DNA of 37,159 bases, taken from NCBI GenBank assembly GCA_902798645.1, contig CADBXV010000008.1:1-37159 (forward strand), read 5' to 3'. Made by a program: the position numbers and the translations under genes. The first letter of the stretch is position 1. Every line of letters begins with the position of its first letter. The stretch comes from an uncultured bacterium (lineage in GTDB: Bacteria > Cyanobacteriota > Vampirovibrionia > Gastranaerophilales > Gastranaerophilaceae). Under the pieces are notes generated by a model. The model was not told the DNA's origin, made no database searches, and saw nothing but the letters and a program-made list of their open reading frames with translations. This document shows, one piece after another, positions 32,170-37,159 of this stretch.

Positions 32170-32607
32170 ATGCGTATCTCGTCAGTAAACAATTTTGAAA
32201 TAAATCCTTCCATGAAAGCAGGGTTATATTTTACTAAAACTTCAAATGTATTGTTTAATAAAGATAAAAATGTAAAGTACATAACAGGTGAAACAGTAAA
32301 GCTTTCAAAAGAAGGTAGCAGGTATATAGAGGATGGTAATATTTTACCAGAGATAAAAGAGAGATTTGCTAAAATCTCATTTATACGTGATTTAGCAGAA
32401 AAGTTTGATACGTTTGTGCATTTTCATGAAACCCCAAAGAGTGAAAGAACAAACCAATTTGAGCATGTTGCGTATGCAAAAGTAAGTTGGGCAGATTATT
32501 CAAAGGAATCTGCAGAAAAGAGAGAATTTCTAGGAAGAAGTCCAATTTCTCAAGAATTGGCAACCGATAAAATGTTCAAAAATATAGAAGATAGAAGTTT
32601 TGTATAA
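32170..32607 (+). CDS. Unknown protein with VNN-INP N-terminus
   Basis: A 145-residue cytoplasmic-looking protein with no recognised family. The start MRISSVNNFEINPSMKAGLY resembles MKVQTNNYINPTFNSKYH of the unrelated large protein at 5605-7458. The middle (IKERFAKISFIRDLAEKFDT) is helical and FVHFHETPKSER is striking. A clear AAGGAG precedes the ATG. Confidence 0.75.
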   Translation: MRISSVNNFEINPSMKAGLYFTKTSNVLFNKDKNVKYITGETVKLSKEGSRYIEDGNILPEIKERFAKISFIRDLAEKFDTFVHFHETPKSERTNQFEHVAYAKVSWADYSKESAEKREFLGRSPISQELATDKMFKNIEDRSFV

Positions 32608-32708: not shown

Positions 32709-32780
32709 TCCTCAGTAGCTCAATGGCGGAGCAACCGGCTGTTAACCGGTAGGCTGTTGGTTCGAGTCCAACCTGGGGAG
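32709..32780 (+). tRNA. tRNA-Asn(GUU)
   Basis: 72 nt: acceptor TCCTCAG/CTGGGGA (one T-G pair), D-stem GCTC/GAGC, anticodon stem ACCGG/CCGGT with loop CTGTTAA giving anticodon GTT, T-arm GTTGG-TTCGAGT-CCAAC. The discriminator is G and CCA is not encoded. Confidence 0.96.
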
Positions 32781-32793
32781 TTTTTAATATTTA

Positions 32794-32816
32794 AGAGGGT
32801 TTCAGCCCTCTTTTTT
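32794..32816 (+). terminator. Terminator after tRNA-Asn
   Basis: AGAGGG (32794-32799) and CCCTCT (32806-32811) with loop TTTCAG, followed by a T run. Confidence 0.85.
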
Positions 32817-32975
32817 AATGCGAATTTTTGGTGTAGATTATTTATAAATAGACAGATAAAATTAATGTAGTTTGACGAGTAGTACGGTTTTATAAGTTTG
32901 ACTATTTTGTTTTCTGAAAGTCGCTCGTTATAGGGGTTTTGCTGGTCGGAAGTGCAACTTTACCAAAAAAACCGA

Positions 32976-33004
32976 TTTACTCATATTTACTCATTATTTA
33001 CTCA
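32976..33004. repeat. Three TTTACTCA direct repeats
   Basis: TTTACTCA at 32976-32983, 32986-32993 and 32997-33004. Spacing is 10 and 11 nt, one helical turn, as expected for cooperative protein binding on one face of the DNA. Confidence 0.85.
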
Positions 33005-33051
33005 CACCGGTCGGCTACTTTCCAATAATAGCAAGAAATTTTTTAAAGCGG

Positions 33052-33103
33052 TTTTTTGGGTATAGAACGCTTTTTTTGGTATAGTATGGTTTTTTTGGTA
33101 AAG
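33052..33103. repeat. Three T-tract/GGTATAG direct repeats, 19-nt period
   Basis: TTTTTTGGGTATAG (33052-33065), TTTTTTTGGTATAG (33071-33084) and TTTTTTTGGTAAAG (33090-33103), each 19 nt from the next. The third overlaps the right arm of the 18-nt inverted repeat. Confidence 0.8.
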
Positions 33104-33110
33104 TTAAAAT

Positions 33111-33323
33111 TTATTGTTTTTCGTTATCAATAAAAAACGCATTTAATAAATCTGCGTTATCTCTTAAATTTTTAATTACAGGTGCGAGGTTATAACATTC
33201 CTCTATTTCAGGCTGATTGATAACAAAATAATCAACTATAACGGCTATATTATAAATATTCTCTGCCCATTTGCTAATCTGTTTAAATTCTTTATTTGTA
33301 ATATTGTATCCTGCTTCTTCCAT
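33111..33323 (-). CDS. Small acidic helical protein, unknown
   Basis: A 70-residue protein starting MEEAGYNITNKEFKQISKWA and ending FFIDNEKQ. It is acidic, mostly helical, and has no membrane segment. The ATG at 33323 has GGAGG 5 nt upstream; an earlier ATG at 33335 overlaps that site. It is transcribed toward the repeat cluster and divergently from TcmP. An accessory or regulatory role in the neighbouring cassette is possible but unsupported. Confidence 0.65.
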   Translation of the reverse strand: MEEAGYNITNKEFKQISKWAENIYNIAVIVDYFVINQPEIEECYNLAPVIKNLRDNADLLNAFFIDNEKQ

Positions 33324-33418
33324 AAACCCCTCCATCTATCACGAAACACAATACATGAAAGAAGTTAAAAAAGCGAAAAAGCAGAAAAGATTTTACAAAA
33401 GAACACACTTTATATTTA

Positions 33419-33427
33419 TGCTATAAT
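33419..33427 (+). promoter_or_regulatory. Extended -10 upstream of the TcmP gene
   Basis: TGC-TATAAT, a strong extended -10, lies 60 nt before the coding start. A -35 at the usual distance is not evident. Confidence 0.5.
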
Positions 33428-33486
33428 CAGCACATAGTAATAGGTGTTGTCGATAATCTTATAAGAATTATGCGTAATACCGATAT

Positions 33487-34623
33487 ATGGGGAATTTATT
33501 AGTGAGTACAAGTAAAAAAATCATTGATCATGCAAATCCACATACAGTAAAGAAATTTGAATTAATCGAAAAATACGTTAGGACTTGGGCACAGAAATTA
33601 CTACAAAACCAATATTGCGATGGAATAGTTTTTATTGATTGTATGTCAAATAGCGGTGAATATATAGATGATGATGGCAAACAAATATTTGGAACTCCAG
33701 TACGTGTTGCTAAATATTTACGTGAAGCAGCCGGTCAATATTATGGAAAGCAAATTGATCTATATTTTAATGATTTAGCAAAAGAAAAAACAGAACATCT
33801 TGCAAGTTTAATGCCAAAAGAAAGTGGCAATTTTCACTGCCATATTTCAACAGGAGATGGTAATGAGTTAGCAAAGAAACTGGGACACTCAATAGATGCT
33901 AATAAACATAAACATTACTTATTAATCTATGACCCTTACCAAGCAACTATCGACTGGAATTCAATTTTGCCATATTTAAATAATTGGTGTGAAATAATTA
34001 TTAATCATATGGTGTCAGACTCAATGCGAGCCGTCAAAATGGTTAAAAAAGATGAGGCACGCAGCAAATATGAGCAAACTTATTTAACAGAACTAGAAAA
34101 TCTTATACCTTATGGTAGTAACAAAACTGCTTATGAAAATCGTATAAAAGATATCATAAAAGCACTTAGAAAAAATAACTCTCGTAAATATTATATTGCT
34201 GCTTTTCCGTTTTTTAATGAAAAGAATGCAATTGTGTATAATCTGATTCATTGTACAAGCAACCTTAAAGGTTTCCAGTTATACAAGAAAAGTGCTTGGC
34301 AAACTTTTGGAGGAAAATCATCTACGAAAAATACACATGGAAAAGAACATCAAATTATGCTTGACTTTGACGGAAAAGGATTTTTTACGACGGCAACAGA
34401 TGAATTTTGCTACTACATAAAAGATATAGCAGAATACCTTCAGGATGTATTTGATGGACAATCTAATGTTCCCTTTAACAAATTATGGGAAGTGTTAGAT
34501 GAACATCCAATATTCCCATCAGATGGCTATAGAAATGATATAAAAAACGAACTGAAGAATAATTTTAATGCTATATTTACTCGTAGCAATGTTAGTTTTG
34601 TTCATAGAGGTGTTGCTAAATGA
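33487..34623 (+). CDS. tcmP: Three-Cys-motif partner protein TcmP
   Basis: A 378-residue protein matching the TcmP family: N-terminal HANPHTVKKFELIEKYVRTW, then IVFIDCMSNSGEYIDDDGKQ (about residues 47-66), the counterpart of the usual FIDgFaGpGxY motif, and GTPVRVAKYL. DLYFNDLAKEK and HYLLIYDPYQATIDW (about 139-153) fit a Rossmann, methyltransferase-like core. TcmP is named for regular pairing with a three-Cys-motif protein, and that partner overlaps its stop by 4 nt (ATGA). Its biochemical activity is not established. The start could also be GTG 33502 (GGGGAA upstream); the ATG has no site. Confidence 0.85.
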   Translation: MGNLLVSTSKKIIDHANPHTVKKFELIEKYVRTWAQKLLQNQYCDGIVFIDCMSNSGEYIDDDGKQIFGTPVRVAKYLREAAGQYYGKQIDLYFNDLAKEKTEHLASLMPKESGNFHCHISTGDGNELAKKLGHSIDANKHKHYLLIYDPYQATIDWNSILPYLNNWCEIIINHMVSDSMRAVKMVKKDEARSKYEQTYLTELENLIPYGSNKTAYENRIKDIIKALRKNNSRKYYIAAFPFFNEKNAIVYNLIHCTSNLKGFQLYKKSAWQTFGGKSSTKNTHGKEHQIMLDFDGKGFFTTATDEFCYYIKDIAEYLQDVFDGQSNVPFNKLWEVLDEHPIFPSDGYRNDIKNELKNNFNAIFTRSNVSFVHRGVAK

Positions 34624-35396
34624 AAAAAGTTAAAGGATATATTAAAAGAAAAACTTTACTCTATAAAACTGGTGTAGAGTACGGTGATTATACTATAAAT
34701 CATATTCAAGGCTGTACTCACGGTTGCAAATACCCATGTTATGCATTTATGATGAAAAAACGATTTGGTCAAGTAAAGACATATAACGATTGGCTTGAAC
34801 CGTATTTAGTTTCTAACACAATAGAATTATTAGACAAAGAAATACCAAAATTAAAGAATAAAATTCAAGCAGTTCAATTGTGCTTTTCATCAGACCCATT
34901 TATGTATGAATATCCAGAAATTGAACAAATGAGTATAGAAGTGATTAAGAAATTAAATAATGCAGGCATCAAGTGTTCAATTCTTACAAAAGGTGTTTTA
35001 CCGATAGAACTATCTAATTTATCAAAAGATAATGAATATGGTATCACACTAGTGTCACTTGATGAGGACTTTCGAGAAAAGATTGAACCGGGAGCTGCAC
35101 CAATAAAGAAACGGTTAAATGCTCTTAAAGCTTTACATGATGCCGGTTGTAAAACTTGGGTAAGTATTGAGCCGTATCCAACTCCAAATATCTATAATCA
35201 AGATTTAAATAAAATTCTATGTGCAATTAAATTCGCTGATAAAATTATTTTCGGGAGAATGAATTATAACAAAGAAGTAACTGCATATAAAACACACAAG
35301 GATTTTTTTAATAGCTGTGCAACTAAAACTATAAAATTTTGTAATAAATACGGCATTACTTATCACATTAAAAAAGGAACAATAATAGAAAAATAA
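34620..35396 (+). CDS. Three-Cys-motif radical-SAM-like protein
   Basis: A 258-residue protein with GCTHGCKYPCYAF, i.e. C32-x3-C36-x3-C40 followed by Tyr-Ala, as in the Gp37/Gp68 (DUF5131) and spore-photoproduct-lyase-like groups rather than the classic CxxxCxxC. Later segments fit a radical SAM partial barrel: VQLCFSSDPFMYEYPE (about residues 83-98), IKCSILTKGVLP, YGITLVSLDEDF, KTWVSIEPYPTPN and KIIFGRMNY. The ATG overlaps the tcmP stop by 4 nt. It is expected to bind a [4Fe-4S] cluster. Substrate unknown; nucleic acid is plausible from the family context. A terminator follows. Confidence 0.85.
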   Translation: MKKVKGYIKRKTLLYKTGVEYGDYTINHIQGCTHGCKYPCYAFMMKKRFGQVKTYNDWLEPYLVSNTIELLDKEIPKLKNKIQAVQLCFSSDPFMYEYPEIEQMSIEVIKKLNNAGIKCSILTKGVLPIELSNLSKDNEYGITLVSLDEDFREKIEPGAAPIKKRLNALKALHDAGCKTWVSIEPYPTPNIYNQDLNKILCAIKFADKIIFGRMNYNKEVTAYKTHKDFFNSCATKTIKFCNKYGITYHIKKGTIIEK

Positions 35397-35455
35397 TATT
35401 AAAAATGCATGTATTCTTATAACTTAAGCAAAGAAGAAGTAATAAAAAAGGTAAC

Positions 35456-35507
35456 CAAGATATATATCTAAATTCAGGATATGTATCTTGATTTATTATA
35501 TTTTTTA
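35456..35507 (+). terminator. Terminator after the three-Cys gene
   Basis: CAAGATATATATC (35456-35468) pairs with GATATGTATCTTG (35478-35490, one wobble pair), followed by a T-rich run to 35507. It overlaps the -35 of the next promoter. Confidence 0.7.
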
Positions 35508-35516
35508 AGCTATACT
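35488..35516 (+). promoter_or_regulatory. Promoter of the DNA methylase gene
   Basis: TTGATT (35488-35493), a 17-nt spacer and TATACT (35511-35516). The start near 35523 gives a 20-nt leader with the ribosome site TGGAGG. The methylase can therefore be expressed separately from tcmP. Confidence 0.65.
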
Positions 35517-35542
35517 TTTATCATCGAATTTGGAGGTTATAT

Positions 35543-37159
35543 ATGAATGAAGGCGTAAGTTATTCTTTATTTTATGATATATTATTAAATCTGCGAGAAT
35601 ATTATTATTCCTATGGAAGAATAGATGATTCAAATGCAAAATTAGATGAAATAATTAAATTGATAGCAATAAGCTATTCATTAGCAAAGAAAAATATTAA
35701 GTTTAATTTAAAATATGTCAGAAAAATTGCTCAAGAAACCGTCGGGGATAGTAATGCTATCGCTTCGGGGATAATTAATTTATTTAACATAGAATCACAA
35801 AACGAAATATTTTTTAATGATGATTCTACAAATATTTTTGGTTCAACTCCTTCATTAAATTTGCAAGCTTCTGATAATAAGTTGGCAGAAAAATTAGTTA
35901 GTGAAATTGAAAAAATTGATTTTTTATATTTATTAAAAAATAGACAATATACAAATTTTGATATTATAAATGAATGTTTTGGGCATTTTGTTAGAGAAAA
36001 TTTTAGAAATAACAAGGAAGATGCTCAATATATGACCCCGTTTGAAATATCTGAACCTATGTTAGATATAATATTTGAATATATAAAAAAAGATAAATAT
36101 ATCAATAATCAAATAGCAGAAAACTTTACTATAATGGATCCTACTTGTGGTGTTGGAACTTTGCTCATTGAAGCTTCAAATAGGTACATTAAATATATAC
36201 AAGATTCAAAATTAAAAAATAAAGCAGAGCTTATTGAAAAATTTATTAATAATGGAATGTTTGGTCAAGATAAAGTTGAAAGAATGGTAAGGCTTTCAAA
36301 AATTAATACATTATTACTTGGTTGTAATATATCTAATATAAAAATTGGTAACAGTATCTCTGGAGAAAGTTATATTGATAAATATTATAATAAAGTAGAT
36401 TTGATATTTACAAATCCACCATTTGGAGCTGAATATTTAATAAAAGATTTGGATTTAAAAAACTATCCTATACTTGATAAAATAAACAATTTATATACTT
36501 CCGTTCCTTCAGAGCTATTAATGTTAGATAAATGTATTAAATTGCTCAAAAGAGGTGGATATTTGGCGATAGTTTTACCGGATTCAGTGTTTTCAGCAAA
36601 AGGTTTTAATGAATTATATAGAGAAGAATTACTTAAAAATTATTCAATTAAGACAATTATAGAATTACCTGCCGTAACATTTGCGCAAGCTGGAACTCGA
36701 ACCAAAACTTGTCTAATGCTACTAAAAAAAGAAAATATTTCAAATTATATATATATGTGTAATTGCAAAGATATAGGTTTTATAGTTAAAGAAAAATTAG
36801 GAGTCCCTGTAAAAATTGCTACTAAAACAAATGATATGTACGCAATTGCAAATGTAATTAAAAATTGTAGTAAAACAGAGAATTATATATTATCAGAAAA
36901 CCCTTCCGTTACAAAGGTAAATTATAATGAATTGTTGGATAATGTATTGAATCCTAATTTCTATGATGCTAAGCGTTACAAAGTAATTGAAGATTTAAAA
37001 AATATGAACCAAGACTACACAATAAAAAAACTTTCTGAAATTGTAAATTTTGATACGACAAATAGAAAAAGCTATATGGTATCAGAAAATGTAAAACACA
37101 TAAGTGTTTTGCATATAAATCCAAATTGCACAATAAATTTTAATGAAGTATACAATTTT
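35543..37159 (+). CDS. N6-adenine DNA methylase, HsdM-like (3' end missing)
   Basis: From ATG 35543 (GGAGG 6 nt upstream) the frame is open for 539 codons to the window edge. After a ~155-residue helical N-terminal domain come QYMTPFEI (162-169, the FYTP-like motif X), DPTCGVGTLLIEAS (199-212, motif I) and NPPFG (291-295, the NPPF/Y catalytic motif IV of adenine-N6 methylases). GGYLAIVLPDSVFSAKGFNE follows, typical of HsdM-type subunits. The last part (LSEIVNFDTTNRKSYMVSEN) resembles the start of an S-type specificity domain, so this may be a Type I HsdM or a Type IIG-like fusion. No stop is reached in the window. Confidence 0.9.
   Translation, partial: MNEGVSYSLFYDILLNLREYYYSYGRIDDSNAKLDEIIKLIAISYSLAKKNIKFNLKYVRKIAQETVGDSNAIASGIINLFNIESQNEIFFNDDSTNIFGSTPSLNLQASDNKLAEKLVSEIEKIDFLYLLKNRQYTNFDIINECFGHFVRENFRNNKEDAQYMTPFEISEPMLDIIFEYIKKDKYINNQIAENFTIMDPTCGVGTLLIEASNRYIKYIQDSKLKNKAELIEKFINNGMFGQDKVERMVRLSKINTLLLGCNISNIKIGNSISGESYIDKYYNKVDLIFTNPPFGAEYLIKDLDLKNYPILDKINNLYTSVPSELLMLDKCIKLLKRGGYLAIVLPDSVFSAKGFNELYREELLKNYSIKTIIELPAVTFAQAGTRTKTCLMLLKKENISNYIYMCNCKDIGFIVKEKLGVPVKIATKTNDMYAIANVIKNCSKTENYILSENPSVTKVNYNELLDNVLNPNFYDAKRYKVIEDLKNMNQDYTIKKLSEIVNFDTTNRKSYMVSENVKHISVLHINPNCTINFNEVYNF

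What the first reader, a model, noticed from the sequence alone, without database searches (positions are those of the whole stretch)
32709..37159. TcmP / three-Cys protein / DNA methylase cassette beside tRNA-Asn
After tRNA-Asn and a repeat cluster the gene content changes from housekeeping to accessory. The cassette has a small acidic protein, TcmP, the C-x3-C-x3-C radical-SAM-like protein (ATGA overlap) and an HsdM-like adenine methylase with its own promoter. TcmP and its partner are widespread but without established activity. A cluster-bearing enzyme, a methyltransferase-like partner and a DNA methylase together suggest a nucleic-acid modification or anti-phage system, or cargo of an integrated element.
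Basis: partly seen in the sequence, partly recalled or inferred. Interest (0 to 1): 0.7.

Follow-up and report, generated by a model that had tools for sequence, protein, structure and literature searches.

The report
Radical-SAM/TcmP cassette on tRNA-side mobile island
Next to an asparagine tRNA gene, this bacterium carries the end of a mobile DNA island holding a two-gene enzyme pair (a repair-enzyme-like radical enzyme plus a methyltransferase-like partner) whose close relatives sit among virus-defence genes in many bacteria; what the pair does is still unknown, but it can now be tested.

Summary
The genes are real. The window is a whole contig, so the DNA methylase gene is cut off and nothing to its right can be read. 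The pair is TcmP plus a radical-SAM protein with Cx3Cx3C instead of Cx3Cx2C, a motif conserved in 91 of 91 loci. TcmP lies within two genes upstream in 88 of 91. In 34 of 34 fetched phylum loci, TcmP lies directly beside a three-Cys protein. AlphaFold models match spore photoproduct lyase (Z 19.2) and the rRNA adenine methyltransferase RlmJ (Z 15.5). The gene after the pair is a type III DNA methyltransferase in 34 of 73 relatives, with GmrSD, HNH and restriction enzymes in others. One rSAM family has repeatedly changed between very different TcmP types. The acidic gene and the repeats are not part of the pair: they belong to a conserved element end (from base 32866) found 48-121 bp downstream of many different tRNA genes, usually beside restriction-modification genes. 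Best reading: a mobile, defence-associated nucleic-acid-modifying pair on a tRNA-flank island, with the HsdM-like methylase as separate cargo. Against generality, pairs elsewhere in the phylum are not defence-enriched. Defence activity is inferred, not shown.

The parts
32709..32780 (+). tRNA-Asn(GTT), upstream neighbour of the island
   Evidence: ARAGORN; tRNA-Asn conserved in 8 of the 14 loci scanned (own locus included); variable DNA behind it in 6 congeners
32793..32812 (+). terminator-like hairpin behind the tRNA
32866..33415 (.). conserved left-end module of the mobile island, beginning TGTAGTTTGACGAG; holds the repeat cluster and the acidic gene
   Evidence: recurs in other genomes with unrelated left flanks; homology stops near 33415 where cargo differs
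33111..33335 (-). small acidic protein (74 aa; likely start at the second ATG, 33323, 70 aa, pI 4.3); belongs to the element end, not to the pair
   Evidence: (58 of 144 related genomes; 8 matching places in own genome)
33487..34623 (+). TcmP (378 aa), RlmJ-like methyltransferase fold, type A; start may be GTG 33502
   Evidence: invariant D51, G57, D149, P150
34620..35396 (+). radical-SAM protein (258 aa), spore-photoproduct-lyase-like fold
34713..34739 (+). Cx3Cx3C cluster motif (C32, C36, C40)
   Evidence: 91 of 91 loci
35456..35490 (+). terminator-like hairpin between pair and methylase
35543..37159 (+). HsdM-like N6-adenine DNA methylase, cut off by the contig end; separate cargo

Best explanation
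The window holds the left end of a mobile island inserted just downstream of tRNA-Asn. Its first cargo is a self-contained two-gene cassette, TcmP plus a spore-photoproduct-lyase-like radical-SAM protein; the next cargo is an HsdM-like DNA methylase. Shown: the pairing, the folds (by prediction), the element boundary, partner exchange, and the association of the pair's clade with R-M and other defence genes and with viral contigs. Inferred mechanism: TcmP, a methyltransferase-fold protein, recognises and positions a DNA or RNA target; the radical-SAM protein, whose sequence stays similar while TcmP changes, supplies constant 5'-deoxyadenosyl-radical chemistry on a base of that target. This marks self nucleic acid or damages invading nucleic acid, so the pair acts as an accessory or stand-alone anti-phage module. 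I give about 0.75 to 'mobile, defence-associated pair' and about 0.35 to the full mechanism.
For: TcmP within two genes upstream of rSAM in 88 of 91 loci; three-Cys neighbour in 34 of 34 phylum TcmP loci; SPL fold Z 19.2 and RlmJ fold Z 15.5; type III methyltransferase as next gene in 34 of 73 against no family over 2 of 71 in distant control genes; XRE-Mod-Res operon with and without the cassette; rSAM identity 0.69 across TcmP types that share 0.17 and at least 8 type changes on the rSAM tree; element end behind many tRNA genes.
Against: No activity has been measured. In the wider phylum TcmP pairs are not enriched beside PADLOC families (no family over 2 of 67), so a role outside defence is possible. 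The cluster motif is not the canonical Cx3Cx2C, so radical-SAM activity is unproven. Some close relatives sit beside non-defence genes (3 response regulators of 73). Loci share ancestry (55 clusters at 90% identity).
Confidence: 0.5

Rival explanations
1. A nucleic-acid repair or anti-restriction pair that serves phages and other mobile elements: it alters or repairs the element's own DNA, and sits next to host defence genes only because both travel as cargo.
For: SPL itself is a DNA-lesion repair enzyme (recalled) and is the closest fold; 9 rSAM and 6 TcmP loci came from viral contigs; rSAM proteins of this broad kind occur in annotated Bacteroides and Parabacteroides phages.
Against: Repeated insertion inside XRE-Mod-Res operons looks like defence cargo; the pair also stands alone in chromosomes of the phylum.
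Confidence: 0.2
2. An RNA-modification pair (rRNA or tRNA), like RlmJ in target, without a defence role or protecting the translation machinery from toxins.
For: TcmP fold closest to RlmJ, then to other RNA methyltransferases such as Trm1 and Trm5; stand-alone pairs without PADLOC-rich surroundings in the phylum.
Against: Patchy distribution (57 of 386 phylum genomes; no other genome of the genus matched) and enrichment beside R-M genes in the window's clade.
Confidence: 0.15
3. A toxin-antitoxin-like or abortive-infection pair: one protein harms the cell, the other holds it in check.
For: Tight pairing, ATGA overlap, mobility and patchy distribution.
Against: Both proteins look like enzymes; convergent and divergent gene orders in 18 of 34 phylum loci are unusual for such pairs (general knowledge).
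Confidence: 0.08
4. A three-gene system: the pair and the HsdM-like methylase work together as one modification or restriction system.
For: Adjacent, same strand, 146 bp apart. Among first downstream genes of relatives Pfam finds N6_Mtase in 2 and Eco57I in 2 of 73, PADLOC mad2 in 4 of 73.
Against: Terminator-like hairpin between them, G+C shift, only 3 weak relatives of this methylase in the other neighbourhoods; the downstream gene differs from locus to locus.
Confidence: 0.05

Closest known systems
PADLOC candidate systems PDC-M30 / PDC-M41 (TcmP + DUF5131)
   Same: TcmP component matches M30A at 1.6e-16 and M41A at 5.2e-11; two-gene arrangement. PDC-M30 is described as a guilt-by-embedding candidate (PMC10855318, passages)
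   Different: The second protein matches M30B/M41B only over about 110 N-terminal residues (23-25 bits) and has Cx3Cx3C, not Cx6Cx2C; it falls below the DUF5131 cut-off (25.6 against 28.9)
Spore photoproduct lyase (SplB) and the PA0069 / Rv2578c / mobile-pair-B radical-SAM proteins
   Same: Closest solved fold; weak profile matches to PA0069, Rv2578c and mob_pairB models
   Different: Far below all those cut-offs (56-61 against 360-430 bits); Cx3Cx3C motif; no sequence-level hit to solved SPL
RlmJ, 23S rRNA A2030 N6-methyltransferase
   Same: Closest solved fold of TcmP
   Different: 14% identity; TcmP has DP[YF] where RlmJ has DPPY (recalled); extra C-terminal region
Type III restriction-modification operons with embedded cargo
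   Same: XRE - [TcmP - rSAM] - Mod - Res order in relatives
   Different: In the window no Mod/Res follows; an HsdM-like gene does
Tni/Tn7-like transposons targeting tRNA flanks
   Same: End beginning TGT, fixed short distance behind tRNA genes; a congener's tRNA-Asn island has Mu-transpos_C and TniB genes
   Different: No transposase, second end or target-site duplication seen for this element

Membership tests
TcmP (TIGR04474) | Score above the curated cut-off | tested here: met
   108 bits against 53
TcmP (TIGR04474) | Encoded beside a three-Cys-motif protein | tested here: met
   window rSAM; 88 of 91 and 34 of 34 loci
Radical SAM superfamily | Profile PF04055 above cut-off and partial TIM-barrel fold | tested here: met
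   53.8 against 29.5 bits; fold matches
Radical SAM superfamily | Canonical Cx3Cx2C cluster motif | tested here: not met
   Cx3Cx3C in 91 of 91; canonical spacing is general knowledge
Spore photoproduct lyase | SPL fold | tested here: met
   Z 19.2, rmsd 3.0, 236 aligned
Spore photoproduct lyase | Catalytic Cys and Tyr residues; repair of the thymine dimer | not testable with these tools
   no residue-level structural alignment available; no sequence hit
PDC-M30 / PDC-M41 | Both components matched | tested here: inconclusive
   A component yes; B component weak and partial; system thresholds not given by the tool
Type I restriction-modification | HsdM | tested here: met
   N6_Mtase 104 bits, PADLOC MTase_I 105.6 bits
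Type I restriction-modification | HsdS and HsdR | not testable with these tools
   contig ends inside the methylase
MADS (mad2) | Curated cut-off of the MAD2 model | tested here: not met
   90 against 720 bits, on a truncated ORF
Viperin | Viperin-like fold and nucleotide triphosphate site | tested here: inconclusive
   viperins at Z 14.6 and below, under SPL at 19.2
Tni/Tn7-like transposon (for the island) | Ends beginning TGT near a fixed target | tested here: met
   left end only
Tni/Tn7-like transposon (for the island) | Transposase genes, second end and target-site duplication | tested here: inconclusive
   Mu-transpos_C and TniB genes occur in the tRNA-Asn island of congener G009, but no matching terminus was found there and no second end was settled

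The most novel reading that the evidence does not exclude
A new kind of modular nucleic-acid modification defence: one constant spore-photoproduct-lyase-like radical-SAM enzyme with an unusual Cx3Cx3C cluster motif is combined with interchangeable RlmJ-like TcmP subunits that choose the target, a radical-chemistry counterpart of an R-M specificity subunit, often embedded inside type III R-M operons.
Probability: 0.3. Interest if true: 0.88.

Novelty: new variant of a known kind. Interest (0 to 1): 0.62.

Why it matters
If the reading holds, radical-SAM chemistry on nucleic acids would join the known defence chemistries, and a widespread orphan pair known only as a bioinformatic candidate would get a concrete hypothesis: an SPL-like catalyst with a swappable RlmJ-like target subunit. 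The three cysteine-motif classes found beside one partner family (Cx6Cx2C, Cx3Cx2C, Cx3Cx3C) suggest one biological role filled by related enzymes. The tRNA-flank element end gives a handle for finding defence islands in this lineage.

Tried and rejected
Looking right of the methylase: impossible, the window is the whole contig, and 36000-37159 matched only itself in the genome. A second tRNA-Asn 3' end as attR in the own genome: only itself and one 3-mismatch site in contig C100. The methylase as part of a conserved unit: no confirmed relative in viral contigs, 3 weak ones among the neighbourhoods. MADS: rejected on the curated cut-off. Viperin-like reading: SPL ranks clearly higher, viperin not excluded. 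Solved relatives by sequence: none for rSAM, two weak hits of no apparent meaning for TcmP. Distant rSAM matches (24-34% identity) in 17 of 193 related genomes were fetched in part (8 of 17) but their neighbourhoods were not analysed.

The right end of the island and a target-site duplication were sought in congener copies and not settled; a stretch that looks by eye like a tRNA or tmRNA 3' end lies near the far side of two copies. The pattern search with up to 3 mismatches is not above its own control (22 hits against 43 control hits, my addition of the control columns over 191 genomes), so the tRNA count rests on the 14 hits with at most one mismatch. Of the 8 dropped hits with 3 mismatches, 2 (L317, L318) also lie 49-77 bp behind a tRNA-Ala.

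Shared ancestry inflates counts: the 91 loci fall into 55 clusters at 90% rSAM identity, and viral and genome loci overlap in part. Papers: PMC12445080, PMC12429752, PMC10855318, PMC10853773 and PMC12988326 were seen as passages only, all others as search listings.
Full report
What is there. The window is contig C8 of a 125-contig assembly of 2.07 Mb, complete from end to end. After tRNA-Asn (32709-32780) come a terminator-like hairpin (32793-32812), a repeat-rich non-coding stretch, a small acidic ORF on the minus strand, then TcmP, the three-Cys protein and an N6-adenine methylase ORF that runs off the contig. TcmP passes the curated TIGR04474 cut-off (108 against 53 bits). The three-Cys protein passes Radical_SAM (53.8 against 29.5) and only weakly touches DUF5131 (25.6 against 28.9). 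PADLOC models PDC-M30A and M41A match TcmP; M30B and M41B match the three-Cys protein weakly.

The pair is new to the genus. Among 193 related genomes, 18 had a match to the rSAM protein; apart from the window's own genome these were 24-34% identical and none came from the same genus. TIGR04474 was found in 57 of 386 phylum genomes, of this genus only in the window's own. Close relatives (65-77% identity) came from 9 viral contigs and two unannotated phage records. Of 311 relatives in named genomes the best 80 were kept; they are mainly Bacillota, with Synergistota, Pseudomonadota, Verrucomicrobiota, Spirochaetota, Actinomycetota and Elusimicrobiota.

The pair is a pair. Of 91 loci (window, L021, 9 viral, 80 genome loci), 88 have a TcmP-type protein within two genes upstream of the rSAM gene. 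The other 3 are L027 (rSAM begins at base 1 of the locus), L122 (it begins near the start of the locus, no ORF listed upstream) and L146 (only a 100-aa ORF on the minus strand upstream). The Cx3Cx3C motif is present in 91 of 91. Of 57 phylum genomes with a match, 34 TcmP loci were fetched; all 34 have a three-Cys protein as immediate neighbour, with gaps of -44 to 177 bp: 25 with Cx6Cx2C and 9 with Cx3Cx2C; 14 convergent, 4 divergent, 16 on one strand. A first pattern had recognised only 22 of the 34; in the other 12 the partner was visible by eye and the pattern was widened. By Pfam 26 of 34 partners match DUF5131 and 8 match Radical_SAM. TcmP is thus paired with three cysteine-motif classes of the same broad kind of protein, in several gene orders.

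Folds. AlphaFold2 models are confident (pLDDT 90.6 and 91.8). The rSAM protein is closest to spore photoproduct lyase: six entries at Z 18.9-19.2, rmsd 3.0, up to 236 of 258 residues aligned, the next family at 15.6. TcmP is closest to RlmJ: Z 15.5, rmsd 3.7, 214 residues, Foldseek E 4.4e-6, with invariant D51, G57, D149 and P150. That RlmJ has DPPY where TcmP has DP[YF] is recalled, not from a call. Neither has a usable sequence-level match among solved structures.

Partner exchange. The TcmP proteins fall into type A (DPYxA, the window's type), type B (DPYG) and a second short TcmP found in tandem with type A in 15 loci (labels set by motif). All 9 TcmP proteins checked, of the three kinds, pass TIGR04474. 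Across 49 loci present in both non-redundant alignments, mean rSAM identity is 0.71 (A-A), 0.70 (B-B) and 0.69 (A-B), whereas TcmP identity is 0.52, 0.43 and 0.17. On an 88-row rSAM tree (quick method) the A/B label needs at least 8 changes, and starred branches alone force at least 5 for type B. Loci were selected by rSAM similarity, which compresses rSAM differences but does not by itself mix the TcmP types on the tree. I read this as a constant catalyst with an exchangeable target subunit; that is inference.

Defence association in the window's clade. Of 90 loci other than the window, 84 have a downstream gene of 100 aa or more, and in 73 it is on the same strand within 400 bp. All 73 were scanned: 34 match type III methyltransferase models and 34 match N6_N4_Mtase. 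Others include mad2 (4), HNH (3), N6_Mtase (2), GmrSD (2), Eco57I (2), BrxA (1), HindIII (1) and MvaI/BcnI (1); against this, 3 are response regulators. Counted per rSAM cluster at 90% identity, the Mod gene occurs in 16 clusters, of 52 that have a downstream gene. For 71 control genes, one per locus and at least 6 kb from the rSAM gene, no PADLOC family matched more than 2. In the reverse direction, of 18 viral loci of the Mod family, 6 have the rSAM or the whole pair directly upstream, and in L205 an XRE gene abuts Mod without any cassette. So the pair is an optional insertion in XRE-Mod-Res operons. In the wider phylum no PADLOC family matched more than 2 of 67 flanking genes, so defence association is not a general property of TcmP pairs.

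The island. Two kinds of match to 32781-33110 meet at 32865/32866. To the right, an end module beginning TGTAGTTTGACGAG recurs in other genomes with unrelated left flanks. In the loci read closely the tRNA gene upstream is Arg (G013, 54 bp), His (G036, 79 bp), Ala (G057, about 121 bp) and Ala (G128, 48 bp). Divergent ends in G056 and in own contig C25 lie farther from tRNA genes (about 440 and 220 bp). In a pattern search of 191 family genomes, 14 of 22 hits have at most one mismatch; 8 of these 14 start 49-106 bp after a same-orientation tRNA gene (Asn, Gly, Ser, His, Ser, His, Ser, His), one at 570 bp, two at about 1.4 kb, and three have none in the 3-kb locus. The module contains the acidic gene, which has relatives in 58 of 144 related genomes and 8 matching places in this one. 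In other copies it is followed at a sharp edge by type III Res and Mod (G013), N6_Mtase plus Methylase_S (G128), an HsdS-like gene (by eye) plus N6_Mtase (G056) or N6_Mtase/Eco57I (own contig C25), and in one (G009 C13) by genes that are not obviously R-M. In 6 congeners the tRNA-Asn gene is followed by differing accessory DNA, with recombinase- or integrase-like genes next to it in three (named by eye), and with a Mu-transpos_C transposase, TniB and a phage-type integrase in G009's island. The window is therefore most likely the left end of an element that targets tRNA flanks and often carries R-M genes; its machinery and right end are not seen.

The methylase. It is HsdM-like, lower in G+C, separated by a hairpin and without close relatives in the related neighbourhoods. 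I treat it as separate cargo.

Literature. 'Three-Cys-motif partner' or TcmP in this sense appeared among the listed papers only in two, as table entries (passages); one lists a TcmP gene (SMa2243) together with the phage-defence gene hna (SMa2245) in a table of regulated genes (PMC12445080). PDC-M30 is named in a guilt-by-embedding set and was predicted in 32 of 100 P. aeruginosa strains, 68.8% of them resistant (PMC10855318, passages). Searches for DUF5131, for 'Gp68 family protein', and for radical SAM with anti-phage and three-Cys gave no paper. That I found no published activity is a statement about these searches only; preprints are not held.

Noticed in passing
window 33111-33335 (-): Multicopy small acidic protein family: relatives in 58 of 144 related genomes and up to 8 places per genome, often within a few kb of DNA methylase or R-M genes. 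Function unknown.
   Followed up: partly
window 32866 and loci L285, L286, L287, L291, L310, L312, L314, L320-L323: A TGTAG-ended element end sits at 48-121 bp downstream of many different tRNA genes in this family of bacteria.
   Followed up: partly
L077 (G009 C19) and L078 (G020 C1): Defence islands behind tRNA-Asn in congeners: in L077 a Mu-transpos_C transposase, TniB and a phage-type integrase with, by eye, a C5 methylase and a Vsr-like gene; in L078 closely similar genes by eye and an N6_Mtase plus Methylase_S protein.
   Followed up: partly
L205, L210-L212, L218: XRE-Mod-Res operons in viral contigs carry other inserts at the place of the TcmP pair (about 412 + 83 + 557 aa genes), or none: an apparent cargo slot inside type III R-M operons.
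   Followed up: no
window 32170-32607 (+): A 145-aa protein upstream of tRNA-Asn has relatives in 14 of 63 genus genomes (own included), with two or three copies in some, and no family hit above a curated cut-off.
   Followed up: no
L289 / L303 (G000 contig C25): Two element ends in the same orientation about 5.3 kb apart, the second directly behind a stretch that looks by eye like a tRNA or tmRNA 3' end.
   Followed up: partly
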